DNA of 64,000 bases from Lathyrus oleraceus (taxonomy: Eukaryota > Streptophyta > Magnoliopsida > Fabales > Fabaceae), in contig NC_066583.1 in assembly GCF_024323335.1 (NCBI RefSeq), positions 368,091,877-368,155,876 on the forward strand, written 5' to 3'. The position numbers were made by a program, and so were the translations under genes. The notes beneath the pieces are model-generated. The model worked only from the letters and a program-made list of their open reading frames with translations. It ran no database searches and had not been told where the DNA came from. The stretch's first letter is position 1. Every line of letters starts with the position of its first letter. Of the stretch, positions 3,430 to 26,485 are shown piece after piece.

Positions 3430-4166
3430 CTACGTCGCCCTGATTCTCATACCAGATGAGGTACGTAGGCAGGAGATCGTGCGAGATCTCTCCGGGCACA
3501 CTTTTCTTTCTTTTTGTGTGTGTGCTTGACAGTTATAGGCTCGAGTTCCCGACTCCCTATTAACTTGTTTGGTTGTTGTGTGCTTGGAAGCTGATGTAAG
3601 TCCATCGAGTGGCATTCGGGTTCCAGTGTGTGTGTGTTTTGGTTCGGATGCCGATGTAAGTCCAGTGATTGGCGTTCGGGCTCCACGTTTGCCTTTTTGT
3701 GTGTGTTTTGGTTCGGATGCTGATGTAAGTCCAGTGATTGGCATTCAGGCTCCATGTTTGCCTGCTTTTGTGTTTTGTTTTGTTTCGGCGTGCGTGAGCC
3801 GAACTACGGCAACTCTGATTCTCATGTTCAGATGAGATACGTAGGCACAAGATGCGATGTCTTGCCGAGTTTGACTAACAACTAACAACTAATCCTTGCT
3901 TGTTTTCGCCCTCGTTGCGATCCTTTCTCTCGCCCTCGTTGCGATCGAGACCTTCCCTTTCTCTTGCCCTAGTTGCAATCGAGAGTTTTGTTCCCGTAGT
4001 TAGTTTGAACTACGTTTTGCTCTGATTCTCATCCCCGATGAGATACGTAGGCATAAGACGCGACGTCTTAGCGAGCACACATCTCTTTCACCCATAGGTA
4101 GCCGAGCTACGAAGACTCTGATTCTCATTCCAGATGAGATACGTATGCAATGGATGCGATATCTAT
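3430..4166 (+). repeat. Three-stem covarying motif, four units (left Ogre LTR)
   Basis: Four units start at 3430, 3804, 4010 and 4107. Each has P1 CTACG, then P2, a hairpin just inside P1's partner CGTAG, then P3, a 5-6-bp hairpin usually with a GCGAT-like loop, then CGAG. P2 is TCTCAT/ATGAGG (3445-3461), TCTCAT/ATGAGA (3820-3837), TCTCAT/ATGAGA (4027-4043) and TCTCAT/ATGAGA (4123-4139). P3 is GAGATC/GATCTC (3473-3490), CAAGAT/GTCTTG (3848-3864), TAAGAC/GTCTTA (4054-4070) and ATGGAT/ATCTAT (4150-4166). P3 sequences differ but stay paired, with G-U pairs allowed. The fourth P1 keeps four of five pairs. Confidence 0.75.
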
Positions 4167-4251
4167 GCGAGTCATTTTTCTCTTGACCCTTTTAGTAAAT
4201 AGTACATTAGATAAACACACACCCTTTAGACAAGAACAACAAGAGTGGATC

Positions 4252-4318
4252 CCGTAGAGTACTACGGATGCGTAGGGGTGCTAATACCTTCCCTTCGCAT
4301 AATCGACTCCCGAACCCA
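4252..4318 (+). other. Conserved hairpin and block before the LTR end
   Basis: CCGTAG-AGTA-CTACGG (4252-4267) is a perfect 6-bp hairpin, followed by GGGGTGCTAATACCTTCCC and a CCCGAACCC-type box. The same hairpin is at 19209-19224, 26587-26602 and 52881-52896. The block after it also survives in the minus-strand LTR near 12239-12290 and, degenerated, at 17675-17715 and 59515-59575. Conservation across unrelated-looking LTR bodies suggests a shared 3' LTR function. Confidence 0.6.
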
Positions 4319-4482
4319 AGATTTGGTTGCGAGACCTTGTCTTTTCCTTTCCTTCTCTTCAGGTTTACTTCGAGCGTTTCCTTTCCCTCCTTTGGGATAA
4401 ATAACGCACGGTGGCGACTCTTCTGTCATTTTCTTTCGCCGGTTGTTTTTTTCGCACCTCCATATTTTTTCGGGTTGCGACA

Positions 4483-5700
4483 CTTAGGATTGACATTAAT
4501 TTTGTAAAACAAATAATGTAATCACCTCTTTTGTTTTAATATGTTGGGTTGAAGAAGTTCAACATCTGGACCAACATGTCATGTAGGATGTCATAACATC
4601 GTGACTGTGACATCGCGCCTGTGTATAAAACTGAATTAGTTAATTCTGTTATGTGTTAACTGATTCAATATTTTGGGATTAGTTAGAATCCTATGTGGCG
4701 TTATTTGTGGAGGTCTTGAAGACTCAATCAGAATATTTGATGAATACAGTTTCTAATATATGGAGACATTTTAGGAACTAAAAGATTGAAGACCTTGATT
4801 GTAGCAGAAGTTTTCTGCTGGCTTTGTAACAGCAAAGGAGAAGTTTGTTGCGATCTCTGAAGGCCCAAATCCAGTTGGGTGTTTAGGTTATAAATAGCAT
4901 ATTGTAACCTAGGTTTTAAGTGCCTCAAACAATGTAAAAATTAGGGGTGTGTGTGAGGTAAACCTCCCAACATGTGGGAAGGTTACCATGTGGTTCTCAG
5001 TGCTCAAAGCATGAGATTATTTGTAACTCAAAGCCTGTAGGTAAGAGTTGTTATGATCTTGAACGAAGCTGTGAAGCAAGTTCAAGTTGTTTAGCATTAC
5101 ATTGTAATTATAGTGATAGGAATGGAAACTGGTGGTTTCTATCTAGGAGTTCCTAGGTATAGATTGCATTGGGTAGGGATTAAGTGAAGAGTTGTAAACG
5201 GGGGAGTTTAACTCTGAATTAATACTGCTGATAGTTGATCTTCTTCCTGGCTTGGTATGCCCCCAGAGTAGGTAATGTTGTACCGAAATGGGTTAACAAT
5301 TACTTGTGTTTTTACCTTCTGCATGTTATAATCCTGTCTATTATAACTCAGTATGCATTTCAGTCTGTTTATCAAGAGAATAACAGACCTGGTACATAGC
5401 CTACTGTCTGAATGTCAAACAGAATGATATGACATTCATCATTGACAGCATATACTGAATAATAGACTGGTTGGTCTTGTACAGTACAACATTTAGTACA
5501 GTCTGTTTACAGGAGAATAACAGACCTAGCATATGGTCTATGATCTGGACGTCAAACTGAATGTTGTGACATTATATGCTAAATTGTAAGATGGTTAGTT
5601 TTTCTGTTTCAGCATTTTTCTCAGGCTATTCTTCAGGAATCCAACAGCTGAGCTAAAATCCAGGAAACTAACAACTGAGCTACAATTAATGAACCTAACA
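4483..5700 (+). mobile_element. Ty1/copia-like LTR, left copy (first 9 bp lost)
   Basis: This matches 53968-55185 at about 99.5%. The intact right copy begins TGTTAGTACC directly after a polypurine tract and ends CTAACA, giving a 1227-bp LTR with TGTTAG/CTAACA ends. The left copy lacks the first nine bases because the Ogre LTR ending at 4482 lies there. The middle carries a perfect TATAAATA (4889-4896), about 415 bp from the LTR start. The stretch around 5215-5310 resembles what I remember of SIRE/Maximus-type legume LTRs. The lineage call is from memory and remains tentative. Confidence 0.55.
4889..4896 (+). promoter_or_regulatory. TATA box of the copia-like LTR
   Basis: TATAAATA, repeated in the right copy at 54374-54381. 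The position, about one third into a 1.2-kb LTR, fits a U3/R boundary. Confidence 0.5.
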
Positions 5701-5717
5701 AATAGCCTATTTGTTAG
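5695..5717. repeat. 23-bp perfect palindrome at LTR end
   Basis: CTAACAAATAG and CTATTTGTTAG flank a single C. The left arm contains the presumed LTR end CTAACA and the right arm a second TGTTAG start at 5712. The same palindrome is at 55180-55202. It could mark two LTR ends lying next to each other or simply a hairpin at the LTR boundary. Confidence 0.7.
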
Positions 5718-6516
5718 CACCCTAATATGTGGAAATTAGGTTAACTTGCTTAACCTTAATTTTAGGAAATACAAGTACAAGGCCCAAGTGTTGCAATGTA
5801 AAAGTTTAGTATTTATTTCAGTCTGTTTTTCAGGAGGATAATATACCTGGCATATGGCCCATTGTCTAAATGTCTAATTGGATGTTATGACAGTTATCTC
5901 TGTCAGCTGATACTGAAGTACAACCTGGTTGATCTTTTACAGTACAGCTAACTGTAATGCTGTAACAGGTGATGTTCAAATCAATGTTGAGACATCATGC
6001 TGAGAACTATGCAGGCTCAACAGAAGTAAGTGCTATGTTTGATCTCTGCTGTGTCTTTGTACCAGATGGACAGAACTAGATGTTCTTCCATTCTATGGTG
6101 ATATAGTAGCAGATGTCGTGACATCGGTGAATGTGTGCAGATTAGTACTGGGTTTTAATTTGTATAATTGTCTTGCTGTATTAGTAACAATGTTGGATCA
6201 GATGTCATGACTTGGAGTAGAACATCTGAACTCTGACTACGCCAGAATTTCACTAAGGTTTATTATAGACAAAGAAACATTACCAAGGTTTATCACCTTA
6301 TAGGAAGAAAGAAGGAAATTCATTGAAGGAGGGTGTATAACCATATGATCTAGATATCAAAGAGAATGTGACCCAAAGAGAAGGTGTGATGAGTAAATCA
6401 AAGAGGAAAGAGTGACTGATGTGCTTGAAGCAGACCCTGTTAATTACTTGATCCTACTTACACTAAAGTCTATGAACGAAGGCAAATGCTTTGAATATCT
6501 AAGGCCTACGCCCCAT
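5701..6516 (+). mobile_element. Copia-like DNA between LTR end and next insertion
   Basis: This stretch repeats motifs of the preceding LTR (CAGTCTGTTTNTCAGGAG, variants of GATGTCATGACAT) and is duplicated at 55186-56001. I see no recognisable Gag, RT or integrase motif and no methionine-tRNA primer site right after 5700, so it may be a second, diverged LTR or untranslated internal DNA. At 6517 it is interrupted by a TGTCATACCC LTR start. The same flanking frame seems to resume at 19436. Confidence 0.4.
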
Positions 6517-7541
6517 TGTCATACCCTAAGTTTTTTACCTGCATTAGCATAACATAAATCAATCCATTTTGTTGTGTATTCCATTAGTTAAAAGTATCCA
6601 TCAAGATTTAGATGAAAAGTCAGGAGTTCTGGCATTTTATCTGATCTTGATGACATTCATTTAGTCATTTGTTGATTAAATAGTCAAAATATTCGATTTC
6701 TCAATCTCATTGCATCATTCATTATGTTTCATCTCGTGTCAGAGTTTCAGAGGGTGACAGTCAAGACTATTATCATCATCTGAATCTTTGTAGGATTTCA
6801 TTTGTGATTGAGAATCAGAAGCAAGTGGTCCAAGGGCGATTCAGTTACATCTGACTGTCTACTCACGGTTATTCAGACAGTATTTCGGCTCATTTGCAAG
6901 ACGTTTGCATTTTATACTTGTCACAACATGCATTTTATTTCGTGTAGTGCTTGAAATATTAGCCAAATAAATTTTTCGAGTCTATAGACGGACCGGTTGA
7001 ATCGTTTATCAACTTCTCATCCGTTTATTATTGTTTTTAGCTAAAATAATCGATGGATTTATTTAGAACTAACTATGTTATTAATTCGATGTTAGGTTGT
7101 GTTATTTTCTAATTTAATTAGTAAAAGCTCATTTTCTTAATTTGTAGTTAAATTTGTGTAAAAAATAATAATAAATGAAAAAAAATAAGCAAAAGGGTGG
7201 GAAATCTCCCCCCATTTTCGTTGCCAGCTACCAAAAAGAAATTGAATTTTTTTAATGGCTGCATTATATATATCCACGTTTCCTTTTGACAAAGGAGAGT
7301 TTTGACCTAATTTCATTTTTCCTCACATTCTGAGAATTCAATCTATTTTCCTCTCCAACATGTTTTTCCCATTCTCACAACTTACTCTTCTTCCGTCGAC
7401 AAACCTTCTTCACTTCCTCGTATCACCATTGCTAACCATACCACCTTTAAAAAATTGAAACACACTCGGCCTTGCTTTCGTGGGACTTCCAGGAACCACA
7501 GTTAGCTACCCTCCAAACCACCATAGGTTGTGCGTGGACTA

Positions 7542-7546
7542 ACAAC
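7542..7546. repeat. Target site duplication ACAAC, left
   Basis: ACAAC directly precedes the LTR start TGTAAGACCC at 7547 and reappears at 17880-17884 directly after the LTR end GCTACA. Confidence 0.8.
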
Positions 7547-8693
7547 TGTAAGACCCTAATTTTGACCCTAAGATCCCTCATGGCATCATATCATTGCACT
7601 TTGCACTTGCCTCAAGGATCATAGCATCTTGGCTCCTAACCTTTGGGTGGGAACTTGTAAGAGTTGGTTTGAGACCACCAAGCATGCTTGAATTGTATAT
7701 TGTTGATTTTCTCATTTTGTTTACTAACCAAAAGCACAAAAATATGTCACTAACATCTTTTGTTTTGTAGCTTGAGCAATCATAAGATCCAAGGCTCCTA
7801 GGAGACCCTATGCTCATTGATATGGCCAGGTGAAAGTGAAAGCAAGCATGATAATGGTTCACAAAGCTCTCAATCATCATATATGCCTCCCAATTATCTC
7901 AACTTGTCAATTTGATCAAAGCAAACCAAAGGGCTTGAGGATTGTTTCCCAAGGAAACCCTAGTTCATCTGTGCATCAACTGTGCCTTGCTCATAAAGCA
8001 ACCTCAACCCATGATCAAATACAATCAAGGGAAGTTCTTTCACTCATCATTTCATGCATATTTGAGCCTATTTGAGTGTCCTCAATCATCAATTCATCAA
8101 GATTTGAGGTATGGACTTGAGAAGTTGATCAGTCAATTCATCTGACTATTTTGAAATACACTGAGACCTAACTTTTAATGTGTTTGTCAAATGGAGATGA
8201 TCCCAAGAGTAAAATGTTCTTAAGAACCATATGAACTTTCATGTTCATCAAAAATTCATTTGAAGCTTTTAAGGTCATCATCCATTTCAAAACATTATAG
8301 GTCATTTTGACTAAAACCCTAATTTTGGGTCAACTTTCCAAGGACCTAACTCACTCATTTTTTATGATTTTGAGGTGGGATCAAATGCATTAGAAATATT
8401 AAGATGTCTATTTCATTTGTTATGTTGAATAAGTTTTCATAATCCTAAAATAAATACATTTTATAATACAAAACATTATAGGTCACTTTGGGCCAAAGGC
8501 ATTGAAATGTGAAAAAGTCCAACTTCAAATGCCCATAACTTTCTCATCAAAAATCCAAATGATGAAAACTTTGAGTCCAAATTGATTGTATTAAACGATA
8601 TACAACTTTTATGTTGAAGGTTTTGTCATTTGGAGCTTGCATCATTGAAATAGAGGGGCTTGGAGTTGGTCCATTTTGGAAATTTTCACATGC

Positions 8694-8904
8694 ACATGTT
8701 TTGCACCTTGAACTTTATGACCAATTTTCACTAATTTATCAATTCCAAATGAAGTTTTGTTCAACATAACAATTGATTCTCATGTCAAGACCTTTCCAAC
8801 CATTACCCACAAGGCCATGTTTTATTTTTGGAAGAGGCATTTTCGAAGAGGGGAAAATTTTGGTGCAAATATGGAAACTTGATTCAAACTTCATGCACAC
8901 TCCA
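8694..8904. repeat. 211-bp flank duplication, left copy
   Basis: This stretch repeats at 14130-14341 with at most one T-run difference that I noticed. The two copies flank the minus-strand Ogre-type element. The uninterrupted version is at about 58178-58390. Confidence 0.85.
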
Positions 8905-9110
8905 GGTTTTCCGGGATGCCCTTACTTTTGCCTAGATATGCCTTTTCAGGTTTTCAGTCCACCAGGATACCCTTTTTTGCCCAAGCCGCCTTTTCAGGTT
9001 TTCGACTTGCCGGGTGTACGTTTTTATATGTTTATCCCTAATTTTTGCCCGAACCCTTTTGGTTCGCCGGGATGCCCTTACTTTTGCCTAGATACGTCGA
9101 CCTAGCGGGT
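8905..9110 (-). repeat. 3' UTR hairpin units after integrase (minus element)
   Basis: On the minus strand this stretch has repeated units ending in an AGGC/GGGCAAAA-type tail. One stem pairs GCGAACC-type arms around AAAAG (9050-9066). Another pairs CAAGTCG with CGGCTTG (9009-8982), where the U-G pair exists only on the minus (sense) strand. The units correspond to those at 29308-29457 in the other Ogre derivative. Confidence 0.55.
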
Positions 9111-9115
9111 CTCTT

Positions 9116-9811
9116 TTATGCGTAGTATTTTTTAACTATGTCCGCGTTCACAGGATGCGGGAAATCTTCGCCATCCATCGTAGCAAGTATCATGGTTCCA
9201 CCAGAGAATACCTTCTTAACTACAAAAGGCCCTTCGTATGTGGGAGTCCATTTACCTCTGGGATCACCTTGCGGTAGAATGATACGCTTGATCACCAAGT
9301 CGCCGATTTGGTACACTCGTCTCTTGACCTTTTTGTTGAATGCCTGGGTCATACGCTTCTGATATATCTGCCCATGACAAACAGCCGCAAGTCTCTTTTC
9401 ATCAATCAGATTTATCTGATCGAGTCGAGTTTGAATCCATTCCTCCTCATCTAAGCCTGCATCTTTCATGATTCTTAGAGAGGGAATCTGAATTTCCACT
9501 GGTAAAACGGCTTCCATTCCGTAGACTAAAGAGAACGGAGTTGCCCCTGTCGAAGTGCGTATTGAGGTGCGATAACCATGGAGAGCAAACAGTAACATCT
9601 CATGCCAGTCTTTGTACGTTACTGTCATCTTTTGTATGATCTTCTTGATATTCTTATTAGCAGCCTCCACGGCGCCGTTCATCTTTGGCCGGTACGGAGA
9701 AGAGTTATGGTGTTTTATTTTGAACTGCGTGCAGAGTTCAGTAATCATCTTGTTGTTCAAATTAGTACCATTGTCAGTGATAACTCTTTCAGGAGACAGC
9801 AGGTTTCTCAA
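9116..9811 (-). pseudogene. Ogre-type integrase, C-terminal half
   Basis: 231 codons carry the second half of a Ty3/gypsy integrase core. Motif ITDNGTN gives an Asp at residue 13 and NGAVEAANK a Glu at residue 49, which is the D-35-E spacing. After them come the conserved YGMEAVLP and GKWTPTYEGPFVVKK segments typical of the Tat/Ogre C-terminus, and the frame ends in KKYYA. The zinc-finger domain and first catalytic Asp are absent because a deletion fuses this segment to RNase H around 9800. The listed methionine start is an artefact of that fusion. No integrase activity is expected. Confidence 0.85.
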
Positions 9812-10461
9812 ATAGATATTTGATAGAATCCATCTTAGAAGTCAATAAAGTGGTATGATTCAACATATACTGTCTTAGTCGGCGAGCAGCCCAAGCCAAA
9901 GCACAGCAAGCTTTCTCGAGCTGTGAGTATCTTGTTTCACAGTCGGTACCTTTTGCTAAGGCAGTATATGGCATGCTCTTTTCGACCAGACTCGTCATGT
10001 TGCCCCAACACACACCTCATTGAATTTTCTAACACGGTCAAATACATGATGAGAGGTCTTTCTTCAACTGGTGGTATCAGAATTGGAGGTTCTTGGAGAT
10101 ACTTCTTGATTTTGTCAAAAGCTTCTTGGCATTCATCATTCCATACCATCTCTTGATTTTTCTCAGTAATTTGAAGATGGGTTTGCAGGTAGCAGTCAAG
10201 TGTGGAATGAATCGGGCAATGTAATTCGAGTGCCCCAAGAAACCTCTGACTTCTTTCTTGTTTATTTCAGTACCCAGATTTACAATTTCAATTAATTCCT
10301 CATGCGGCTGTATAGTCTTTTCTTCTTGCAGTAGTCGGGCAAGTTCTCCAGGGACTTCACAATCTTCCTCGCTTCCATCCTCGGCTTGGTAGATCGGATT
10401 TTCAAAGTCATAATGAACAGTAGCAGAATTATTATCAACAGGATCCAGAGTGGCTATGGAT
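9800..10461 (-). pseudogene. Ogre-type RT/RNase H remnant (exon 2)
   Basis: Reading leftward from the intron end, the exon starts with the acidic linker typical of Ogre pol, containing ELARLLQEEK. It then jumps by deletion straight to the end of RT (EVRGFLGHSNYIARFIP) and into RNase H (CQEAFDKIKKYL, TLLTSKMDSIKYLF). The catalytic RT palm is gone. A one-base loss near 10158 and another near 9957 shift the frame, so the reading breaks into separate short frames. RNase H is joined to integrase near 9800. This was once part of a gag-pol polyprotein. Confidence 0.8.
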
Positions 10462-10674
10462 CTGCAATTTGTTACGTGAGTGTGTGCAAGAAAATATAGC
10501 TTGTTTGAAAAATGACAGGAAAGATAAAGAGCGCAATATTTGAATGCAAAAAGTCCATTGATTTATTGAATATGAATATGCTTATGAAAATGACAAAACC
10601 CTTGAAAAATTAGCTATTGTGCCCCGGGTATAGACACAATGCTTTTGAAATACTAAAATAGCAATAACAATTAC
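10462..10674 (-). other. Intron of the Ogre-type element
   Basis: A GT at 10674-10673 overlaps the stop codon that closes gag, and an AG lies at 10463-10462 after TTGC. Removing these 213 bases takes out the stop and continues in frame into the pol linker. An intron at this place is a known feature of Ogre elements. The second derivative here has the same arrangement at 28445-28713. Confidence 0.75.
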
Positions 10675-11240
10675 TCCTGACTAAAGGAAATCGGGATAGT
10701 GTCTTCAGCCTTCCAATTATTGAGTTCGTCACCAATTGTTGGGTAGACCCAGCTATCCAGGTCGCAATCGCTGTCGACATCCTCTATAGCATTAAGAGTT
10801 TTGTCATGATTAGGCAGAGGAGCAGTGATGACCTTAGGAGTCTCAGGCGGATCCAATTCAAATTCTCCGGCGTCGATCATATCCTGAATTTTATTCTTCA
10901 ACGACCAACAATCGTTCGTATTATGCCCGGGGCTATCGGAGTGATACGCACACCTGGCGTCGGGATTATAACTAGGAGAAGTAGTGTTGGGTTTTGCAGG
11001 AGGATCTCTGAGGGTAATTAAATTTGCTTTTAGCATACCCTGCAGTGCTTGTGCTAAAGTCATATTGATCTTCGTAAACTGCCTTCTTCCCGGGTTAATG
11101 TGCCTCATAGATTTCTTGTCTTTTTTCTTCTCGAGCAAGAGAGCCTTCAGTTCTTCTTGCCCCTTGGATAAGTTCAAGATCATCTCCTGGAGTTGAGCAT
11201 TCTGAGTATGGAGATCCTTGACAGTTTGTTCGAGGTCCAT
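10671..11240 (-). pseudogene. Ogre-type Gag, internally deleted
   Basis: 189 codons are open on the minus strand. The first 45 residues form a heptad-rich coiled-coil-like N-terminus beginning MDLEQTVKDL. They are followed directly by a C-terminal Gag part with a knuckle-like CAYHSDSPGHNTNDC (Cys-X3-His-X5-His-X5-Cys) and then an acidic tail ending just before the intron. The usual several hundred residues of capsid are missing, which shows an in-frame deletion. The start is the ATG at 11240 after a leader containing a long A-rich tract on this strand. It may still be translated but cannot form a normal capsid. Confidence 0.75.
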
Positions 11241-14503: not shown

Positions 14504-17475
14504 AGCATGCTCAGCTCCATTATTCTTCAACCTGAAGGCGCCTGATATGCTGCAAAATTGAATCTATAACCTCACATAAAGGAATTTCTCTCTTTCACTT
14601 TCAATTTTCAGATCCAAATTTCAACCTCATTGGTTGTTCTTTGGACTCTAATTCCTTGGCCTTGCTTCATCTTCACCTCAAGAGTATACTGCAATCAATA
14701 GTTGAGAGGAATCGTGCTTCACAGATCCACATTTCCAAGGTTGATGCACAAACTTTTCTTCTTCGAAACTCACTGATTATTGCTTGTTTCTTGTGTTTAT
14801 TGGCTTGGCTGAAGTCCTCTCATCAGAGGCATTTGAATTGTGCTTTTAATTTTGCAAAATCATCAAGTTCAGTTTGGACTCCATTATTTTCCTCTTCTGA
14901 TTTCTCTTCCTATGGGGATCTAGAAGGAAAACCAATGGTACAGGGGTGATGTACATCACCCCAGCTTTCCAATGATATGAGGATCGCTTCATTTGGTTAA
15001 GATTTTTTATCTACAACTTTGGCCAGAAAATACAAGCTCGCCGAAAAAGACAGCGGTGTACACCATCGTCTGTTTGACAGATCAAATGCGAGTCGTGTGA
15101 TGTGTTATACAGATCTAATCTCCACCTTCCATCCTTATGACTTTATTTAATAGTTTGTAATGCTCAGTTGACTATGGTCTTTGGTGCGCGCGCATGCCAC
15201 AACCCTTGGATGTGCCAACTCAATTAATGAGACTGGATCCAACGCGCCACATATTTTCCCATTTTTCATTTTCTGATTTAATTCCCTTTTATTTTCTTTT
15301 ATTTCATTTATTTCAAAAAATCATAACTCTCTCATTTTAATTCCAAAAAATATGGGACTAATTGCATTATTTCCCTTTTAATTTCTAGTTTCTAAAAATG
15401 ATTTTTAATATTTTTTATTTTATCATTTGATATTTTTTGTGAATTTTCTCTTTTCTGGTTATTTTTAATTCATTTTAAATAGTTTCTAATATTCAAAAAA
15501 ATACAAAAATATTTTTCTAACCTCTTTGAATGATGATGGATCTATGAAAAATATTCTCATCAATTTATTAATTGATTTGAGATTTATTTGAGATTTTAGT
15601 TCAATTAGGTTATTTTTTTATTCATTTTTAATTGTTTAAAATAGTTTCTGGTTTCTAAAAATGCTGAATTTTTTTGTCAAACTTTGTTTGACCTTTTTGA
15701 ACTTAGGATGATCCATTTGGACTTTTCAAAGTTGATTTGAAATGGATTTGAAGTTTGACCTTTAATTGTTTATTTTAATTCAAGTATTATTTTAATTTTC
15801 AAAAATACCAAAAATATTTTATTTGTTTCTCGACTTCTAAGTTTCATTTTGCTTCTGTTTACTATTGTTTGACCTTGATTCCATCCATCTTTGGTCAATG
15901 AACTTTGCTTAATGAATTTGAAGTTCAATTCATGTATATTCTTATTCATTTTTTTCTTCATCTTTTTCTTTTTTATCAATGAGTTAGAGATTGGTGGTTA
16001 GCCTTGATATATGAGAGGTTTAACCTTCCTTGATTCAAATCTAATTCATCTTGATCATAGATCAAGTGAATGGCTTTGCATTAAGGATAGGTTGCTTCTT
16101 GATCAAGCAAAAAACCTAAATCAATACAAGATCATTCTTCTTTTCTTTTGGTATGGCAAGTTGTAGGAGCTTGGCTTACTAGTCAAGGTCTCTAACTTGT
16201 GTTTGTTGCCTATATTTTTATTGACCGGCCTCAGATAGGTGTGACTACTACATTAGTCCACTTACGATTGCTTACCATAACGCTAAATTGCCTTATGGAA
16301 CACTAACTCTAACTATTGACCATTAACTTTTAATTCTTGCACTTTACATTAATGCAAATTTAATATTCTTGTACACATTATTCATTTGTTTTTTCCCATT
16401 GCTCACTTGAGCTCATGTTTATGTTAATGCAATTTGCCTTTTGCTCACTTGAGCACATAATTGTGTATATACTATTGTGCTTGTGTTTTGTTTTGATTGT
16501 TATGAACCAAATGCAAATGGACAAAAGGACTTAGACTTTAGGACATTCCCTATGCAAAATGGAGTCAAAGAGCAACTAGGCCTCATGCCTTTAGAGTGCT
16601 ATAAATGTCAAAGAGCAACTAGGCCTCATGCCTTTAGAATGCTTAATGTTAAAGACTTTGAAAGGACCTAATCTCTAAATTCACTCTTGTCCATTCTTTG
16701 TTTGCATTATGGAACCTTTTGATGTGTGTGTTCTTGTGCTAGGGATTCCAACTTGAGCCTAATTGAAGAACCATTGTCATGAGCATCCAAAGTGAGAGAT
16801 ACAAAAGCCATTGGCAAATTCCTAGGAGCTTTGTTTGATTATGTGCTTGATTGCTTGAGTATTTGCTTATTTGCTTGCCCATTCCAAAGGATGGGAGCTA
16901 CTTGGATCATCACTATGATCTTAAGAAGGGAACTCCATTATGGTTTTATTTCTCTTCCTTCATCTTTTTATGATTAGGACCTTAGCCATTCTTCTTCTTT
17001 CCTCCACTCTAACCCAAGCCAAAACTTTTGTGCAAACATTAACATTTGTTTCCAAACATTAGAAACCTAAGCATTATGCTTTTGATTTTCGAACTTTCTT
17101 TTCATAACACTTATTTTGAATTGAATCCTAAGTCAACTTTGACCATATTTTTGTAAATACTTTTCATTGGTAAATACAACTCACTCAATTGTTTTTTGTG
17201 GTTTCAATGGCCACTTCTTGCCAAAGCTTTTCATAAACATTATCTATTAGGTTTGAGTTATCCTTGAGGTTGATATAATACTCACCTATATCCTTAGTGA
17301 TGGACAATAAGTCTTCCATGCTTATTATAGGGTTAACCCCTCACTAACATGTTGAAGCTATCCTCACATGGTGGATTTGTGGTTTTAGGTTGAGTTTTCT
17401 CCCTTGGATAACAAAAGACCTTAAGGTTTTTGGACTAATCAATTCACCAACTTGTTTTGAGATTTTTACCCCGAA

Positions 17476-17532
17476 CTACGAGGTTTTGATCCTAATCTTT
17501 TTTAAGATGGTACGTAGGCAGTGGGTTCATCC
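17476..17532 (+). repeat. Three-stem motif, single diverged unit (solo LTR)
   Basis: P1 is CTACG (17476-17480) with CGTAG (17513-17517). P2 has changed to ATCTT/AAGAT (17495-17508). P3 is TGGGT/ATCCA-like. The pairing of P1 and P2 is kept although the P2 sequence is entirely different from the other LTRs. Confidence 0.6.
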
Positions 17533-17879
17533 ATTCAAACACAAAATTGTAAATAATTTGTACATTCTTCTCTCATCTCCCCAATCATGTTTGCACAAAT
17601 AATTTTTCACAAATACCAACCTACCTTACAACAAATTGTGAAAAGGGCAACCTAGGAGTACCTAGGATGTTTTGGGTGCTTAAAACCTTCCCATTGCATA
17701 ACCAACCCCCTTACCCCGATCTCTGACATTTTTATTAGTTTTTGATTCGATAAAACTTCTCGGTTTTTGTTTGCTTTCTAACCTTTCCTCAGATAAATAG
17801 AAGTGTAGTGGCGACTCGAATTGTATGATTTACTTTTGATTTAGTCAATAAATCTAAAGGTAATGAATACCCCGCTACA

Positions 17880-17884: not shown

Positions 17885-18980
17885 ATCACCACTTTAATTG
17901 CTCCAGGCGCGATTTTTTCGGCGAGATCAGTAACCACCAACGACAACCGTGAATCCATTGAACCAGTCACGATTTCTCTCTCAAACTTGAGCCAAACACG
18001 AGAACTTTCATAGTCATCAAAAACTCCGATCTCCTATATGCAAGTTGTTCAATGCCGTCAAACTCGTCGCTTTCTGATTCATTTTTGATTCGTAACTGTT
18101 CATGTCCTACATTACGGTAATGATTCGAAACGATTATTCTGTTATATGCTGCTCAGAAATTTGTTTTGAGTCGATTAGGTTATATTGTTATTTATGGTAT
18201 GGAGTATGTTGTTTCGGTGTCGATTTGATCATGTGATTGCTATAGTTATTTTTGATTATGTTACTGTTGTGTTTATTTTTTTGAGTCTGCTTTTGTTGTG
18301 ATACAAATGTTGAATAATTTTCTATATGCATTATTGAGATTGCTATGATGTTAAGTTTTTTTTAAGATTCAATATTCTTTTCATTTATGGAATATAGGAG
18401 GCTGCATTTTTGATATTATGATGAGTCATGAACATTCTGCAGATTGAATTTGTTAATGTTTAACAGTGTTGGTTCGTGGCTTAACCATTTTTATACAACA
18501 TGTTATTGGTTCATGATAGTTGTATACATTGATTTGTTTTGGTTTAAACATGTTGAGTTGATTCTTGGAACTCATTTTCTTTTAATTTGTTTCCCTTCAA
18601 ACTATGATATTTTGTTTTAATTAATTATCTTAGTATTGTTTGTTCTAACTGATATTGTTAATTGTTTTTTGAATTTTGTGGTGTATATAGATGTCCATCC
18701 GACTATGTCGCAATATTGATGACTTTTGGTGACATTTGGAACCAAGAATATTATTGTAAATTCAAACTTGTTTAATGTTTTGATTTTGTATCGCTATTGT
18801 ATTATGCTCTAATATTTGTTTCGGTTTTTATTTGGTTATATTGCGTGCGCATTGACTGAATTGTGAATGACAATTTTGTATTCGTTAACTGCAACTTTAT
18901 GAATTTGTTGAATACCAATTTGTTCATTAATTAGTGTTGTTGTTGCTGCAATTTCGTGTTTCAACTCGGCTTGCTCTGAT

Positions 18981-19122
18981 TCTCATTCCAGATGAGATAC
19001 GTAGGCATAAGACGCCATGTCTTAGCGAGCACACATCCCCCAAACCCCTAGGTCAGCCGAGCTACGAAGACTCTGATTCTCATATTCAGATCAGATACGT
19101 ATGTAGTGGATGCGACATCCGC
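18981..19122 (+). repeat. Three-stem motif, two units (2.6-kb LTR)
   Basis: The first unit has P2 TCTCAT/ATGAGA (18981-18997), CGTAG (19000-19004) and P3 TAAGAC/GTCTTA (19008-19024), but its CTACG arm has decayed. The second has CTACG (19062-19066), a P2 with one mismatch (19078-19095) and P3 GTGGAT/ATCCGC (19106-19122), all six positions paired with one G-U. Confidence 0.65.
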
Positions 19123-19435
19123 ACGAGTCATTTTCATTTAACCCCTTTTTTTAGTAAACAGCACAAGATAAACTCACACCCTTTAGACAAGAACTACAAA
19201 AGTGGATCCCGTAGAGTACTACGGATGCGTAGGGGTGCTAATACCTTCCCTTCGCATAACCGACTCCCGAACCCAAGATTTGGTTACGAGACCTTGTCTT
19301 TTCCTTTCCTCTTTTCAGGTTTACTTCGAGCGTTTCCTTTCCCTCGTTTGGGATAAATAACGCACGGTGGCGACTCTTCTGTCATTTTCTTTCGCCGGTT
19401 GTTTTTTCGCACACTGTATTTTTCAGGTTGCAACA

Positions 19436-21373
19436 GAAAGATTCTCAAAACTATTGAGGTGCTTGCAAACAGAAGATGTTGACACAAGAAGAGTATTTTC
19501 AAAGTATTCTTATGGTGGAAGTATCTGAAAGGATAATTGGGAAAGGATTTAAGATCAATGTCTACTTGTGCCAAGTACAAGTATTTAATTGATTATCCTT
19601 GGAGCTCCAGATAACTGATGTTCTTAAAGATGTTGGCACATCTCTTCTTCAAGACCCTGTGCAGAATCACAGGAAGGATAGTACATTCGTTTATGACCTA
19701 TCTCTTTGGTGGCAGCAAAAGCATATGATCTCTGAAAAGGTTTCCTGGCAAGAAACATGTTCAGCCTTGGTGTGTACAAGAAGAAGAAGACATCATAGTC
19801 TTGATGGTGGTTACTTGGATCAGTTTATTTCTGATCTAGGCAAGGAAGTGCATTGGCTAATGCACACTGTGGAGTTAAGAACAAGTGGCAACATTCTTGA
19901 CATCATGGAAACAACCTTGATTTAGGAAGTGGAATCCTTGGTATAGCTGAAGGGTTAGTTTCTAACTGGTCCTTCTGAAGACTCATGCATCAGAATGTCT
20001 GATGTCTTTGGAGTAGAAGCAGGGATTCATCAAGGTGTGAGCTTGGATGACTTAACTGCCAACCTGCAGGATGGAGGTTGTTTACTCAAACTTGGGTCCA
20101 CAAATCAAGTATATGAGAACGTTGAACTCCTGTTCTGTGAAGGGAGGAGGTTCTTTCAAGTGGCAGAAGAAGGAGCTGAATTCAACCGCTAGATGTTAAA
20201 ACACAATGTTGTGACATTTGGTTCAACATCAGAATCTTAGTTGGTAAAGTGGCACATCAACTTAAGATAGAAGGGTCTACAGAGTTGTAGATTGGGTACT
20301 TCAAAAAGATCGTTCTCATTGCAGTTCTTTGGAGTTGCTGGATGGAGAGGATGTTACATGTTCATGTCTTAGAGAATCTAAGTTTTGTGTAACATGTAGC
20401 TTGAAGTTCAAGTCTCACTTGGTACGTCAGAATATCTTTGGGAGAAGTCTGATAAACGTGGAGAGGTCACAAAGTGGCATTTTGACCTTTTCATATGAGG
20501 ATTCATGAAGGAGGTAATCAACCAGTGGCATTTGGCCTATCTCAGAAGTGAGTTCGAAGAATCAAGATGATCAACTTATGGCAGCTGATTATTTTTGAGG
20601 AAAGTCTAAGACAAATTACTTTTGAGCAGAAAAGTAGTAAGTTGAAGACAAAAGGAGGTGTTTTCTATTCATCTGTTGGAGCTTGTGGTAGGAGTTCTGA
20701 GCTATCTATGGAAGATTATCTCTTGTAATGAGATGAGAATGTATATGTCTCAATTTGTGTCTGGGTTCTTTTGGATCAAGCTGGTGACTCAGTGATATCT
20801 GAAGATTATCAGATGGGGTTCTTTGTTATGTTGTGAAGGATGTCCTAACTTATGTTAGAACATTTTGTGAAGTGACTTTCTGTTCTGGTTAGAAGAGAGA
20901 TTGACACAGAGTGTGGATGTGTTCAGCCAAGAAGGTTGAACAGAGGGAGTGCTCTTGAAGACATGAAGATGCGTCTTATGTTTTCCATTCATCAAGTGGT
21001 CTGGGTTCTCTTTGAATCAGGAAGTATGTGAAGGTCCAACTTTGGGGTGTTGTATATGTTCATGTGTGATCTCCAAGTTTCAAGAGGAGAGTTGGTTGTT
21101 CATGACAGGGGGAGTTCTGTCTTTGCGCTGCAAGTAATCATCAAGCTTGTGGTCTATGTGTTCTCGGATAACAAGGTATGGCACCTGGTTAGTTATTGGG
21201 ATGATGAGGTGTGTGTCAAGGCTGAGTGAGCAGAAGAATGTCTGATCGGATGTCATGACATTGCCTTGGACAATACTGTTATTTCCTTCTGAAACTTACA
21301 GTCATATGGATGTGGTGTGTCTCATTGTAATATATTAGAATAAGCCTGAGTGTTACAGTGGTGTGATACATGG
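19436..21373 (+). mobile_element. Copia-like element body, left of the Ogre insertion
   Basis: This stretch continues as 53088-53958 once the Ogre (21374-53087) is removed, and that continuation ends in a polypurine tract and the copia-like LTR. It has short open frames (up to 108 codons at 19599-19925), but I recognise no RT, integrase, RNase H or Gag motif. Phrases such as GATGTCATGACATT recur here and in the copia-like LTR, linking the two. It is probably the long 3' non-coding or decayed env-like part of a SIRE/Maximus-type element. Confidence 0.4.
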
Positions 21374-21378
21374 GGAGT
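21374..21378. repeat. Target site duplication GGAGT, left
   Basis: GGAGT directly before the LTR start TGTAGCACC; repeated at 53083-53087 directly after the other LTR. Confidence 0.85.
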
Positions 21379-22402
21379 TGTAGCACCTCAAATTTGCACC
21401 TATCATTGTATATACCATCTCATATTAGGTCATAGCATATCATGGTCCATTTGCATAGCATTGCATTGTCCCCAGTTGCCTCAAGAGCAAGCAAGCCAAG
21501 AATTAGGTCAAACTGATCAGGAGATCAGTCAACCAATCAAGCAAGGGTGTTTCTCAAAGAGCCAAGGCCCTAGGGTCTGTCCAACAAGTTCACATGACTT
21601 GGAGGTCCATTTGAAGTGTTCAAGTCAAGGGTTGGATGTTCAGAAGCCATCAGTTCATGCACAGACAGTCAAAAACCCTAGAAAGTCAAAGTTGGTCAGC
21701 TGTGGTTGATTTTATGGTTTTGATGGTTGGATTTGGTTTGAGAGAGCTTATTCATGTCCCAATAGGCCTCATATATCATGGCAATCAACATCATTGAAGA
21801 ATTTGAAGCCAATCAGAAATTTTCCAAAAATAGAAAGTGGACCTGTAATTTTAACTGCCAAAAATGGAAACTTCTTGATCCTCAGCTTGCATCATGATAC
21901 AAGCTTCAAATGAATTTTTGCCCAACATGAAAGTTGAAGATCTTGTTCTTCCATTTTCAAAAAGTCCAAGAACTCCCAAATCCCATGAATGGTTTGCAAG
22001 ATATGATCATTTCATTTTCACATTTTCATGAACTTCAAATGGCCATGTCTCATGATTCCTTTGGCCAAATTTGATGGGGTTTTTCCTACAAACTCCATTT
22101 AATCCCCTCTTTCCAAAATATAAACATCATGTACCAAAACCTTGCCAATCAAAATGGCATTTTTTGACTTGTTTCATTTAAAATCCAAGTTTGACCAATA
22201 TTTGACTTTTGTGATTTAAGTGTTTCTACTCATTTTGGCCATTTGGGACTTATTGGAATTGGTATTTGCAGCATGACTAAGGCCCAAATCGAGCAGCATT
22301 CCACCATATACCTCCCATGTGCACTAAATTGGCAACTTAGCAAATTAGCTCAATTAAACAAATCAAGCTTACCACTCCTTAAACCAAAGTTAAACAGACC
22401 AA

Positions 22403-22408
22403 TATAAG
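22403..22408 (+). promoter_or_regulatory. Likely TATA box of the Ogre LTR
   Basis: TATAAG, 1024 bp after the LTR start, in the same context as the TATA-like box at 403. Copy in the 3' LTR near 48698. Inferred. Confidence 0.45.
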
Positions 22409-25013
22409 GCATTTTTCTGTCACAAACCAACCCTAGTAGCAGCCTCTAGGATACAGAAATTCCTTCTTCTCTCCTTCTTGCATTTTTGCACATTGCATTC
22501 TTTTGGCCAAATTCTCCAAACACTCGAGCAAGCCATCGTTCACTCACCATCCAAACATCATTTCAAGCTCATTCCCATCGCCATTTCACAACTGGAAGAG
22601 GGTTTACACGACTGTTCTTCAATACCAACCATCCATGGCAGAACTTGATTCCACCTCTTACAAGGGATGCTGAGCTAATCTTTCTTCATCTTTCAACCTT
22701 TGGGAGCATAACACGCATCTGTTCAAGCTCATACAGACCAAACAACTGCTGAATCTTCCTCTGCTCTTCATATTGGTAAATTTTCGAATCTTTCATTTTT
22801 CAAATCCAGGCTATGCTTTGTGTAGTTCTTGATATGCTGAGTCTAAAGCAAGTTGAATCACTTAAAATGATTGAGGAATGCATGAGAAATCTGAGAATGA
22901 AGTTTTGTGTTCATATGTATTTTTGTTCGAATCTCTTTCCATGTTGTGTTATACTGAAAAATAATGATGGATATGTCTTCACCATGCTTGAATGAATCTA
23001 TTGGTATGCTATTTGTTTATTTCTGAGAACTTTCATTCATGAACAAAGATGGATGTTGAACTTTCTTTTGCTCGATTCAGAGTATGTGTGTTGATTTAAT
23101 GAAAATGGATATTGGATTCGTATTGGCCTTGCTTTGATGAACATTTCTGGGTAGCCACTTTTAATTTCTGGGATTTTTTTTATGAAACTCGATTGGGAAG
23201 GGATGATGTTCATGATGCTGTGTGATAAACCCTAAGTTATTCCCAGTTTGTTCTCATTTTGCTGTATCGTGTTTGGTTGTTGTTCATATTGTGACTGCAT
23301 GAACTATATCATTGCCATGATGTTGCATAATTCTGTTGAAGATCGTTTTTCCATGATGATGAACATGAAGGTGTGGCTGCTGTTAAAACCCTAAGCTTCC
23401 TTAAACCCTAACAACATTTTTCCAGAAAACATGAATGCTATTGGCTGTTGTTGTTTGACTCTGCTACCGAGTTACTGTTCCATTGGCTATTAACCAATCA
23501 AAACATTTCCTTGCATTTGTCTGTACGCTGCGTTTAGTTAAATGAAGGTGGTATTTACGAGCGTGCCATCGGTCAACCTTGGTTGACTCTCCATGCCATG
23601 TTCTTTGTTCATGTTTGCTACAATTTGTTCATCATCTTTCCAAATTCATTTCTCACTCAATTTAACTCCAAAATTCATGAAATGTTTTCCATCATTTTCA
23701 CATGAATGTCTATTATTTAATCATGATTTTTGCTGAATTTTTGGTTGGCTGGATTTTTATTGGCTCTAGGTTTCCTAACATGTATGCTCATTTGATACCT
23801 TTTGCCAAAACCCTTGTGAAATAATGATGATGCATCCAATGACCCTGAAATTTTTTGTGGTTGTTCTACACTCATTCATGTTCATTTTGATGTAAATTTT
23901 GTGCATTTATCATATGTGGTGTGTGGGATGTGATTTTCTGAAGTAGGGTGTGACAATTTGTGTCATACCAATGTTATGCAACTTCTTGATTTTTGTTGAC
24001 ATGCTTCCTGGCTTCCAAATAATGTGAAATTTTGCATGAGCCGTCTCTTATATGTCTAGTTGATGTGTGAATTTTCTTGGATTTAATCATGCCATTTCCT
24101 AATTGTTTGTGAATTTTCTTCTCTGCCTAGTCAATTGTTGACTTTGTGTGACACACCTTGCCATTTCATTTGGGAAATTCTCATGCCTTATTGTATGATC
24201 ATGAAATTTTGCATGTGCATATTAGACATCTTGAGCTTTGCATTGGTGTTAATCTCATTCATTTCCCATCTGTTTTCATTTAGTTATGATTTTTTGAAGT
24301 TGACTCATGTATGTTTGACTTCTTTGTGCACACTTGAAATTATGTTGACTTCCTGATTTTAATTGACTATCTTCCCCTGATCCAATTGAGCTGAAATTTC
24401 ATATGCATGCTATGTTATGGATTGTGATTGAGTATGAATTATTTCATAATTTTTGGAATTGATTATGTTTGGGTTTGAGCTTGGTCTTGCTGTTGACCTT
24501 TTGTGTGCTCCCTCTTGCCATGTTTTGACTTCTTTGGTCTATGAAATGACAATGATGCATGTTATGAACTTGTGACCAATTGTGCTTGCTTCTTAAATGC
24601 TTGAACTTGACTTTGGTTGACCATTTGTTTGCTGTTTTGACTTTCCCTTTTGTTTTTGACCCTAGGCTTGTCCTAGTGGTCTTTTGGGCTTATGTTGAGT
24701 TCATTTGTTTCAGGTTAAGCATAGTGCTTCAAAGAAACCATGCCAGTTTGTTTGAGCTTGACTATATATCATGTGCTAACCTTTGTTTTGTAGGTGGTAT
24801 GACTCATATGGGTTGGGTTTGGTGCTTTTGCACTTCTGTTTATTGATCTAACTGTTTGATTCATTTCCTTTTGATTTGAACTGTTGAACTGTTTACTGAT
24901 TAGCTTGACTTTTTCAGGTACCCTTAGTTGCTTAAGTTCTCTGAACTTGCTTTGCTTTGCTTTTTAGCAACTTGCTTGAGGTATAATCTCTTTTACTTCA
25001 TGTAGTCTGGAGA

Positions 25014-25398
25014 CCCGGCCTGTTATTTGGCCGGGCAAACTGTCTGAAGTCCTCCTTAAGAGGCAATGCTTGTGTATGTTTAATTTGTCCTTGTACAGAG
25101 TCAAAGACCTCCTAAGTGAAGAGGCAATTGGCAGAACCAAGGGATAAGCAACCTATCCCCTGCTATTCAGTGTGTCTTCTGTCTTGCTCACACCACTGTG
25201 TTGATGCATTTCAGATAAAAACCCAAGATCTTGTGCAATTGCACAGTTGAGTCAGTATCTAATGTGTAGAAGGGTTCCCACTTTCTGAACCCACACATTC
25301 TTGTCAAATGCTCTCCCAGGCCAGGGATAGAAGCAATGAGGCACCCCCCTCATCTCCTTTCATCTGCTTCACCTTAGCCTCTCAATGGCAAGGTTAAG
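25014..25398 (+). other. Multi-hairpin block, 5' LTR copy
   Basis: Counterpart of 2674-3060 with CCCGGCC/GGCCGGG (25014-25035), GGGATA/TATCCC (25141-25159), the palindrome TGTGCAATTGCACA (25232-25245) and CTTAGCC/GGTTAAG (25373-25398). Two stems show compensating changes relative to the left LTR. Copy in the 3' LTR at 51309-51692. Confidence 0.6.
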
Positions 25399-25570
25399 AG
25401 CAACTCTTTGACCCTATTCCAGTTGGCCTCAGTGCCTAATCCTTGTGTGAGCCTCTTGTGTGCATATAGTGCGTGCTATCTGTGGTTGTGATTGCTTTGC
25501 TTCTTAGGCTAGCTTTGACTTGCTTCCTGTGCAAGTTAGGTTTAGTTTAGACTAATCCTTGTTTGCTTTC

Positions 25571-25712
25571 GCCCTCGTTGCGATCCTTTCTCTCGCCCTC
25601 GTTGCGATCGAGCCTTTTCCTTTCTCTCGCCCTCGTTGCGATCGAGCCTTTTCCTTTCTCTCGCCCTCGTTGCGATCGAGACTTTCCCTTTCTCTTGCCC
25701 TAGTTGCAATCG
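25571..25712 (+). repeat. 34-bp minisatellite in Ogre LTR
   Basis: GCCCTCGTTGCGATCGAG-type units start at 25571, 25595, 25629, 25663 and 25697, with 34-bp spacing after a shorter first unit. Two further units lie near 25840-25890. The left LTR has three units at 3910-3985. Confidence 0.8.
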
Positions 25713-25737
25713 AGACCTTTATCCCTCCGTAGCCGAA

Positions 25738-26485
25738 CTACGGCAACTCTGATTCTCATGTTCAGATGAGATACGTAGGCACGAGATGCGATGTCTTGTT
25801 GAGTTTGACTAACAACTAACACTAATTCTTTTCTCTCGCCCTCGTTGCGATTGAGACCTCCCTTTTCTCTTGCCCTAGTTGCAATCGAGACCCTTGCTTC
25901 CTGTGCAAGCCGTGTCTAGGATAGGTTGGCCCTTGTGCCATTTAGCTAGAAACCTTAACTTAGGGTTGACTTTGCATGACAACATCTAGGCTCGAGTCGT
26001 AGTCTCCCTAGAGTTGTGTCTCCCTCTGTTATCTGGTTAGGCTAGATCCTTTATCCCTGCGTAGGGGAACTACATCGCCCTGATCTTCATACCAGATGAA
26101 GTATGTAGGCAGGAGATTGAGCTGATCTCTCCGGGCGCCCTTTTTCTTTTTCAACCCTTTGTGTCTTAACCACCCTTGTGTGTGTTCTGGTTGGAGTCCG
26201 ACATAAGTCCAGCGATTGGCAGTTGGTTTCCTGCGTGTGTTTGTTGGTTCGGATGCTAATGTAAGTCCAGCGATTGGCATTCAGGCTCCACGTTTGCCTG
26301 TGTTTGTGTTTGTTTGTGTGCGTGTCAGCCGAGCTACGAATGCTCTGATTCTTCTCTCGTCCGAGAAGATACGTATGCATAGGATGCGATATCCTAGCGA
26401 GCATGTGTCGTTTCCCCAGTCTGAACTACTTCGACTCTGATGTCTATGCCTGATAGACTAAGTAGGCCCAGGATACGATGTCCTG
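25738..26485 (+). repeat. Three-stem covarying motif, four units (Ogre 5' LTR)
   Basis: Units start at 25738, 26070, 26334 and 26426. P1 pairs are CTACG/CGTAG, CTACA/TGTAG, CTACG/CGTA(T) and CTACT/AGTAG. P2 pairs are TCTCAT/ATGAGA (25754-25771), CTTCAT/ATGAAG (26085-26101), CTTCTC/GAGAAG (26351-26368) and GTCTAT/ATAGAC (26442-26458). P3 pairs are CGAGAT/GTCTTG (25782-25798), GAGAT/ATCTC (26113-26129), TAGGAT/ATCCTA (26380-26396) and CAGGAT/GTCCTG (26469-26485). Each stem is paired although almost every arm has a different sequence. An identical-layout copy is at 52032-52779. Confidence 0.8.

What the first reader, a model, noticed from the sequence alone, without database searches (positions are those of the whole stretch)
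3430..26485. Repeated three-stem RNA-like motif with compensating changes in Ogre-type LTRs
At least twelve independent units in five LTR families share one layout: P1 CTACN...NGTAG enclosing hairpin P2, then hairpin P3 with a GCGAT-like loop, then CGAG. P1 is seen as CTACG/CGTAG, CTACA/TGTAG (26070) and CTACT/AGTAG (26426). P2 is seen as TCTCAT/ATGAGA, CTTCAT/ATGAAG, CTTCTC/GAGAAG, GTCTAT/ATAGAC, ATCTT/AAGAT and TCTTCA/TGAAGA. P3 is seen as TAAGAC/GTCTTA, CAGGAT/GTCCTG, TAGGAT/ATCCTA and GTGGAT/ATCCGC, among others. Double changes that keep pairing, plus G-U pairs, point to selection on RNA structure. With TATA boxes about 1 kb into the LTRs, the units would lie in the transcribed leader. I know of no described element of this kind.
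Basis: partly seen in the sequence, partly recalled or inferred. Interest (0 to 1): 0.87.

Follow-up and report, generated by a model that had tools for sequence, protein, structure and literature searches.

The report
Pseudoknotted RNA units in plant retrotransposons
The long terminal repeats of an abundant group of plant retrotransposons carry repeated copies of a roughly 75-base RNA structure whose pairing is kept while its letters change; it is a pseudoknot rather than three simple stems, its function is unknown, and the databases and papers searched here do not describe it.

Summary
A covariance model without the pseudoknot, built from 10 window units, finds 16 units in the window (12 plus 4 LTR-mate copies), all on the + strand. 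In 93 distinct units from this genome 96.1% of PK cells pair, slid controls 24-49%; all five PK pairs show two-sided changes, 11 of them separate on a tree built without PK. PK, P3 and P4 exceed 100 tree-based nulls; the nearly invariant P1 does not, and in a strict all-pairs test only two pairs reach E < 0.05. One pattern has 69,886 genome matches, control 7. Rfam has no match. The helix order is that of the HDV ribozyme, but other HDV hallmarks are missing. Best reading: a repeated cis-acting module of the genomic RNA, most likely a protein-binding handle for export or packaging. The function is inferred, not shown.

The parts
3427..3507 (+). Unit A1 in LTR A (PK GCCC/GGGC)
   Evidence: 79.5 bits
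3801..3880 (+). Unit A2 (PK AACTC/GAGTT)
   Evidence: 90.9 bits
4007..4086 (+). Unit A3 (PK TGCTC/GAGCA)
   Evidence: 88.8 bits
4104..4182 (+). Unit A4 (PK GACTC/GAGTC; P1 in the bulged GCTACG/CGTATGC form)
   Evidence: 90.0 bits
17473..17550 (+). Unit E1, divergent, in another LTR family; not in the model's training set (PK GTTT/AAAC, P3 ATCTT/AAGAT)
   Evidence: 29.3 bits, E 5.8e-7
18962..19040 (+). Unit B1 (PK TGCTC/GAGCA; P1 5' strand broken)
   Evidence: 80.0 bits
19059..19138 (+). Unit B2 (PK GACTC/GAGTC; one P3 pair broken)
   Evidence: 83.2 bits
25735..25814 (+). Unit C1 in the 5' LTR of element C (PK AACTC/GAGTT)
   Evidence: 87.0 bits
26067..26146 (+). Unit C2 (P1 CTACA/TGTAG, PK CGCCC/GGGCG)
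   Evidence: 70.3 bits
26331..26412 (+). Unit C3 (PK TGCTC/GAGCA, P3 of 7 pairs)
   Evidence: 82.4 bits
26423..26501 (+). Unit C4 (P1 CTACT/AGTAG, P3 GTCTAT/ATAGAC, PK GACTC/GAGTC)
   Evidence: 82.9 bits
52029..52108 (+). 3'-LTR mate of C1
   Evidence: 89.0 bits
52361..52440 (+). 3'-LTR mate of C2
   Evidence: 70.3 bits
52625..52706 (+). 3'-LTR mate of C3
   Evidence: 82.4 bits
52717..52795 (+). 3'-LTR mate of C4 (a C-to-T difference in PK leaves a G-U pair)
   Evidence: 79.7 bits
59325..59402 (+). Unit F1, divergent, in a further LTR family; not in the model's training set (PK TGCCT/AGGCA)
   Evidence: 27.9 bits, E 1.7e-6
21379..26788 (+). 5' LTR of element C, preceded by the 5-bp target duplication GGAGT
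47673..53082 (+). 3' LTR of element C (99.6% identical to the 5' LTR), followed by GGAGT
26791..26809 (+). Primer-binding-site-like sequence just inside the 5' LTR of element C (tRNA not identified here)
   Evidence: read from the sequence
26587..26602 (+). Downstream hairpin CCGTAG-AGTA-CTACGG in the conserved LTR 3' block; a second covarying element

Best explanation
Each unit is a pseudoknotted RNA module of about 65-80 nt. P1 (CUACN/NGUAG) and PK (4-5 bp) form an H-type pseudoknot whose first loop is 1-4 nt. Hairpin P3, preceded by an almost fixed UGA(U), fills the second loop; hairpin P4 (loop GCGAU or GCGAC in 55 of 93) and an almost fixed C fill the third. One to four or more copies lie upstream of a conserved block near the 3' end of the LTR, on the same strand as that block. 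Shown here: the helices and the selection for pairing (weakly for P1). Inferred: because the LTR is part of the genomic RNA, the array is a cis-acting signal of that RNA. The most likely job is a repeated binding platform for a host or Gag protein that marks full-length, intron-retaining RNA for nuclear export and/or packaging, working like the MusD transport element or retroviral leader structures.
For: Whole structure: 96.8% of 2,041 cells paired and 16 of 22 pairs with two-sided change in 93 distinct units. PK, which was not in the search model: 96.1% of 465 cells, all 5 pairs with two-sided change, slides 24-49%. Thirty further units (29 new): 133 of 150 PK cells pair, slides 53-75. Of 2,278 possible 5-bp stems only 9 are at least 85% paired, and these are the four helices with shifted or overlapping forms. 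Two-sided changes on trees: PK 11, P3 21, P4 18, P1 5. First pseudoknot loop 1-4 nt in 93 of 93; UA between P3 and P1' in 93 of 93; C before PK' in 89 of 93. 99 of 108 units have the LTR 3' block downstream on the same strand, within 800 nt. G-U 94 cells against A-C 21 overall (see against). Export idea: a review notes introns in Ogre of Medicago, a pseudoknotted transport element in MusD and no direct export study for plant LTR elements (PMC12786077, passages only).
Against: Nothing here tests function. P1 is nearly invariant; its covariation score (0.115) is below the null mean (0.148), and units with CATAG in its 3' strand are uncompensated in 6 of 6. In an all-pairs test against a tree-based null only 2 pairs reach E < 0.05, none in PK or P1. 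For PK alone two of the five shuffle measures are not exceptional (pairs with two-sided change, reached in 53 of 500 shuffles; pair types, in 456 of 500). The G-U excess comes mostly from P4 (70 of 94); in PK A-C outnumbers G-U, 12 to 6. Nested folding of single units is mostly close to shuffled sequence (z from 0.45 to -2.20) and forms the PK helix with P1 open in 6 of 12 units. Start site, R length and polyadenylation site are unknown. All units come from one plant genome.
Confidence: 0.55

Rival explanations
1. Structured block acting on the RNA's fate: exoribonuclease resistance, or control of polyadenylation or processing, rather than a protein handle.
For: Compact pseudoknots in tandem resemble duplicated exoribonuclease-resistant RNAs (recalled). 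An ATAAATA stretch lies near the LTR end in all five LTR ends aligned.
Against: The helix order is not that of the xrRNA classes I recall. One paper search on xrRNA with retrotransposons and plants listed nothing on such an element (8 papers listed). No processing sites are mapped.
Confidence: 0.2
2. Self-cleaving ribozyme with the HDV nested pseudoknot order, cutting 5' of P1.
For: Helix order P1-PK-P3-P1'-P4-PK' equals that of HDV-like ribozymes (recalled); a nearly fixed C lies between P4 and PK' (89 of 93), where HDV has its catalytic C (recalled).
Against: P3 has about 6-7 pairs instead of about 3 and its loop varies, so the HDV P1.1 contact has no counterpart; P1 starts with C and has 5-6 pairs. 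No Rfam match. Several active copies per LTR would cut up the genomic RNA (inference).
Confidence: 0.07
3. Two-state switch: P1 and PK are alternatives, not formed together.
For: Nested folding puts PK around P3 and P4 with P1 open in 6 of 12 units and forms P1 in 2 of 12.
Against: The program cannot form pseudoknots. Loop lengths (1-4 nt, then two hairpins) allow both helices at once, and the short first loop is kept although its letters vary.
Confidence: 0.13
4. Translation element (ribosome entry or shunt) in a very long leader.
For: If the TATA-like site at 22403 were used, the leader would be over 4 kb with 118 ATG.
Against: Start site unproven; no open frame is tied to the units.
Confidence: 0.12
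5. DNA-level palindromes, such as protein sites or cruciforms, as discussed for the Sirevirus LTR boxes.
For: Repeated inverted repeats in plant LTRs are known (PMC2829016: abstract, outline and passages). In PK itself A-C cells outnumber G-U cells, 12 to 6.
Against: PK crosses P1, so no duplex cruciform can hold both; over all helices G-U exceeds A-C 94 to 21, mostly in P4; units keep one orientation relative to the LTR block in 99 of 108.
Confidence: 0.06

Closest known systems
HDV-like self-cleaving ribozymes (architecture recalled)
   Same: Order of helices, with one hairpin in each of two pseudoknot loops, and a nearly fixed C before the last strand; HDV-like ribozymes occur in some mobile elements (PMC4035085, start of abstract in search listing).
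   Different: Longer P3, varying P3 loop, no P1.1 partner, no G at the 5' end of P1, no Rfam match, several copies per LTR.
MusD transport element (MTE) and other retroelement export or packaging structures
   Same: A pseudoknotted cis-acting RNA structure in an LTR retroelement (PMC12786077, passages).
   Different: No sequence or structural comparison was made; MTE is a mouse element, here there is an array of small modules in plant LTRs.
Repeated motif boxes in Sirevirus LTRs (PMC2829016, abstract and passages)
   Same: Many conserved short dyads in LTRs of plant retrotransposons.
   Different: Those are simple palindromes, all but one with a CGG-CCG core, upstream of the TATA box of Ty1/copia elements; these are asymmetric, covarying pseudoknots near the LTR 3' end of Ogre-like elements.

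Membership tests
HDV-like ribozyme | Helix order P1-P2-P3-P1'-P4-P2' (recalled) | tested here: met
HDV-like ribozyme | Short P3 whose loop pairs with the P1-P4 joint (P1.1) (recalled) | tested here: not met
   P3 of about 6-7 pairs; loops vary (TCCAG, ACCAG, GTTCAG, TTTTA, TAGCACC)
HDV-like ribozyme | Catalytic C in the joint between P4 and P2' (recalled) | tested here: inconclusive
   C in 89 of 93 at that joint, but directly before PK'
HDV-like ribozyme | Match to an Rfam model | tested here: not met
   no match at E <= 1 in the window; only an snR40 match at E 4.6, 14.4 bits, in 25720-26520
HDV-like ribozyme | Self-cleavage 5' of P1 | not testable with these tools
   needs an in vitro assay
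Ogre (Ty3/gypsy, Tat clade) | Very long LTRs and a 5-bp target duplication | tested here: met
   5.41 kb LTRs, GGAGT on both sides of element C
Ogre (Ty3/gypsy, Tat clade) | PBS next to the 5' LTR of the Ogre type | tested here: inconclusive
   PBS-like site at 26791; tRNA not identified
Ogre (Ty3/gypsy, Tat clade) | RT/RNase H/integrase of the Ogre branch | tested here: inconclusive
   only stop-to-stop frames of 136 aa or less in 26790-31228, read by eye and not domain-searched; the frame at 45982-47613 has no retroelement domain
Sirevirus LTR repeated motif | Symmetric palindrome, usually with CGG-CCG core (PMC2829016) | tested here: not met
   units are asymmetric four-helix structures

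The most novel reading that the evidence does not exclude
A new, very numerous class of structured RNA: tandem HDV-topology pseudoknots that form a modular leader or 3'-end domain of plant giant retrotransposons, with a catalytic or exonuclease-blocking activity of its own.
Probability: 0.15. Interest if true: 0.93.

Novelty: new variant of a known kind. Interest (0 to 1): 0.72.

Why it matters
Ogre elements were estimated to make up 20-33% of the pea genome (PMC2206039, passages), yet RNA export of plant LTR elements has not been studied directly (PMC12786077, passages). A covarying, repeated RNA module in such LTRs gives a concrete, testable handle on that question. It would also be a new RNA family with very many copies in one genome (about 97,000 matches to two non-overlapping patterns; matches, not checked units).

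Tried and rejected
Relatives in other collections: a loose pattern in viral contigs and genome contigs gave what look like chance hits (both lists capped). Of the fetched loci, 11 matches had CTAC upstream as well and were looked at only by eye. Stricter patterns gave none in viral contigs. A search of papers for core letters listed six papers unrelated by title.

A structure-only descriptor scan put ten real units at the top (score 20 or more, + strand only; best on the minus strand 19.5), but in all it gave 22 pseudoknot hits on + and 19 on -, against 5-10 in five one-strand shuffles. It is therefore not used as evidence on its own.

A coding explanation (the commonest unit can be read as a short open frame) was considered by eye and dropped, because unit C4 changes the putative residues while keeping the pairs.

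Pattern TTGAG N18 TACGTAGG, meant for F1-type units, has 84 hits against 236 in its control, so it gives no signal. Pattern CTGAT N17 TACATAGGCA has 1,582 hits; the six fetched are uncompensated in P1, which counts against P1 at that pair. Other hairpin repeats in the LTRs were looked at only briefly.

Full report
What was checked. Searched over the whole window with filters off, the model returns 16 units, all on the + strand. Besides the ten training units and their four LTR mates, it finds two that were not in its training set (17473 and 59325; 29.3 and 27.9 bits, E 5.8e-7 and 1.7e-6); the next match has E 0.074. Element C has LTRs 21379-26788 and 47673-53082, 99.6% identical, with the target duplication GGAGT.

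A fourth helix. In the window the pairs are GCCC/GGGC, AACTC/GAGTT, TGCTC/GAGCA, GACTC/GAGTC, CGCCC/GGGCG, GTTT/AAAC and TGCCT/AGGCA. This helix (PK) crosses P1, so the fold is a pseudoknot: P1 - PK - UGA(U) - P3 - UA - P1' - GCA - P4 - NC - PK'. On ten window units PK has 98% of 50 cells paired against 20-46% with slid partners, and the whole structure has 96.8% of 220 cells paired with 13 of 22 pairs changed on both sides. P1 also has a variant register: 22 of 25 units that begin GAG have U instead of G at the end of P1', which allows GCUACG to pair with CGUA-U-GC around a bulged U. The fold program forms P1 in that way in unit B2.

Genome-wide data. The window's own genome has 3.795 Gb, with contigs C1-C7 reaching hundreds of Mb. 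The pattern TGAT N17 TACGTAGGCA has 69,886 matches against 7 for the pattern read backwards; CTGAT N17 TADGTAGGCA has 27,194 against 2; TTGAT N17 TACGTAGGCA has 4,485 against 3. I searched the model in the window plus 38 of the 70 loci then held (close duplicates left out): 108 units, 93 distinct. In these, 96.8% of 2,041 cells pair, 16 of 22 pairs have two-sided changes, and slid controls give 26-49%. PK alone: 96.1% of 465 cells, all five pairs with two-sided changes, slid controls 24-49%. Against shuffled 3' letters, percentage paired, cells with two-sided change and the covariation score were reached in 0 of 500 shuffles for PK, but the number of pairs with two-sided change was reached in 53 and the number of pair types in 456. 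Thirty further units taken by small requests (29 new) give 133 of 150 PK cells against 53-75 when slid; one of these rows is misaligned and was kept in the count.

Relatedness. Because the units are related, I used three tree-based checks. (1) Parsimony on trees built without the helix in question, ties broken towards standard pairs in the test and in the slid controls alike: two-sided changes from one standard pair to another number 5 (P1), 11 (PK), 21 (P3) and 18 (P4), against 0-5 when partners are slid by 1 or 2 columns. (2) A home-made version of the R-scape null (substitutions re-placed among columns along the tree): the six strongest of all column pairs are in the structure, as are 12 of the top 14, but only two (60-81 in P4 and 28-45 in P3) reach E < 0.05 against all pairs; the best PK pair has E 0.2 and the best P1 pair E 6.3. 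(3) Of 2,278 possible 5-bp stems only nine are at least 85% paired, and these are the four helices with shifted or overlapping forms. The covariation scores of P4 (0.71), P3 (0.65) and PK (0.62) exceed the best of 100 null simulations (0.56, mean 0.15; best stem that is at least 85% paired); P1 (0.12) does not.

P1. Four of its five pairs hardly vary. The fifth (columns 8-52) changes on both sides five times by parsimony. In the units, which were picked by their 3' strand, 9 of 11 with UGUAG carry the compensating A and 2 of 11 a G-U pair, while one AGUAG unit is unpaired there. Units with CAUAG are uncompensated in 6 of 6 and rare (1,582 matches), as expected if CpG sites decay after insertion. 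P1 is thus well conserved but weakly proven by covariation.

RNA rather than DNA. The main argument is that PK crosses P1: a pseudoknot cannot be a duplex cruciform. In 93 distinct units there are 94 G-U and 21 A-C cells, as expected for sense-strand RNA, but 70 of the 94 are in P4; P1 has 6 and 2, P3 12 and 3, and in PK A-C outnumbers G-U, 12 to 6. These are cells, not events. All window units are on the + strand, which is the sense strand of element C; 99 of 108 units have the conserved LTR block (at most 3 mismatches) downstream on the same strand, 84-797 nt away, and 9 do not although there is room, E1 among them. The first pseudoknot loop is 1-4 nt in all 93, UA between P3 and P1' is invariant, the C before PK' is kept in 89, and UGAU follows PK in 88. 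Such fixed unpaired letters suggest tertiary contacts or a binding partner (inference).

Not in the databases searched. Rfam: no match at E 1 or better in the window; for 25720-26520 only an snR40 match at E 4.6, far below its gathering score. Paper searches on Ogre and RNA structure, HDV-like ribozymes with LTR elements, core letters, plant retrotransposon pseudoknots, Ogre start sites, xrRNA and Ogre hairpins listed nothing on such a motif; I saw listings, some of them capped, plus passages of PMC6317226, PMC11963269, PMC12786077, PMC2206039 and PMC2829016 (with the outline and abstract of the last). Papers outside the open library were not searched.

What it may do. The LTR is part of the genomic RNA (general knowledge), so the module is most likely a cis-acting RNA structure of that RNA. 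Copy number (one unit seen in families E and F, two in B, four in A and C) and position (the last unit starts about 365-405 nt before the LTR end in A, B, C and F, read) point to a repeated platform. The review PMC12786077 notes that Ogre of Medicago is one of the few plant LTR elements with an intron, that MusD exports its full-length RNA through a pseudoknotted element, and that plant LTR-element RNA export has not been studied directly (passages). I therefore rank an export or packaging handle first, at about 0.35 for that specific role, about 0.75 for a cis-acting role in the genomic RNA, and about 0.93 for the structure. The HDV ribozyme has the same order of helices, but P3, its loop and the start of P1 do not fit, and I do not file the unit there.

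Limits. One genome, a null model of my own making, alignments fitted to a model that contains P1, P3 and P4 (PK was left out), no experiment, start site unknown, and an Ogre assignment resting on LTR size, target duplication and PBS-like site because no pol was recognised in element C (most frames not domain-searched).

Noticed in passing
26587-26602, and the same place in the other LTRs (4252, 17651, 19209, 52881, 59512): Downstream hairpin with loop AGTA in the conserved LTR block: 65 of 73 regex matches in 77 sequences have fully pairing arms, with five different Watson-Crick arm pairs (CCATCG, CCGTCG, CCGTAG, CCTAGG, CCTTAG); the regex itself fixed three letters of the 3' arm. A second covarying RNA element.
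   Followed up: partly
3906-3980, 25553-25890, 51847-52184: 34-bp tandem repeats form a hairpin seen as TCGC/GCGA (20 times) and TTGC/GCAA (9 times) among 133 regex matches that are otherwise mostly chance; a compensating change.
   Followed up: partly
3189-3306 and 25519-25535: 32-bp repeats with the hairpin CTTGC-TTCCTGT-GCAAG, seen in 38 of 67 regex matches.
   Followed up: partly
about 4410, 17810, 19367, 26735, 59664: A sequence like the PBS (GTGGCGACTC or close to it) lies inside the LTR in all five families aligned, roughly 50-75 nt before the LTR end where that end is known; perhaps a relic of an earlier LTR end.
   Followed up: no
31229-45765: Nested Ty3/gypsy element on the minus strand arranged LTR-body-LTR-body-LTR, with two 1470-aa frames (33099-37511, 39452-43864; the first has gag, protease, RT and integrase domains) and 99.9% identical copies.
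   Followed up: no
46123-47399: 55-bp tandem array, about 23 copies, just upstream of the 3' LTR of element C.
   Followed up: no
4483-8904 and 53968-58389: A 4.4 kb direct repeat, 99.5% identical, that brackets element C and starts exactly where LTR A ends at 4482; its nature was not worked out.
   Followed up: no
17473-17550 and genome places: E-type units have a P3 with an internal loop or bulge (CC..GG outside, CAT/ATG or ATCTT/AAGAT inside, read by eye), so P3 seems to tolerate interruptions.
   Followed up: partly
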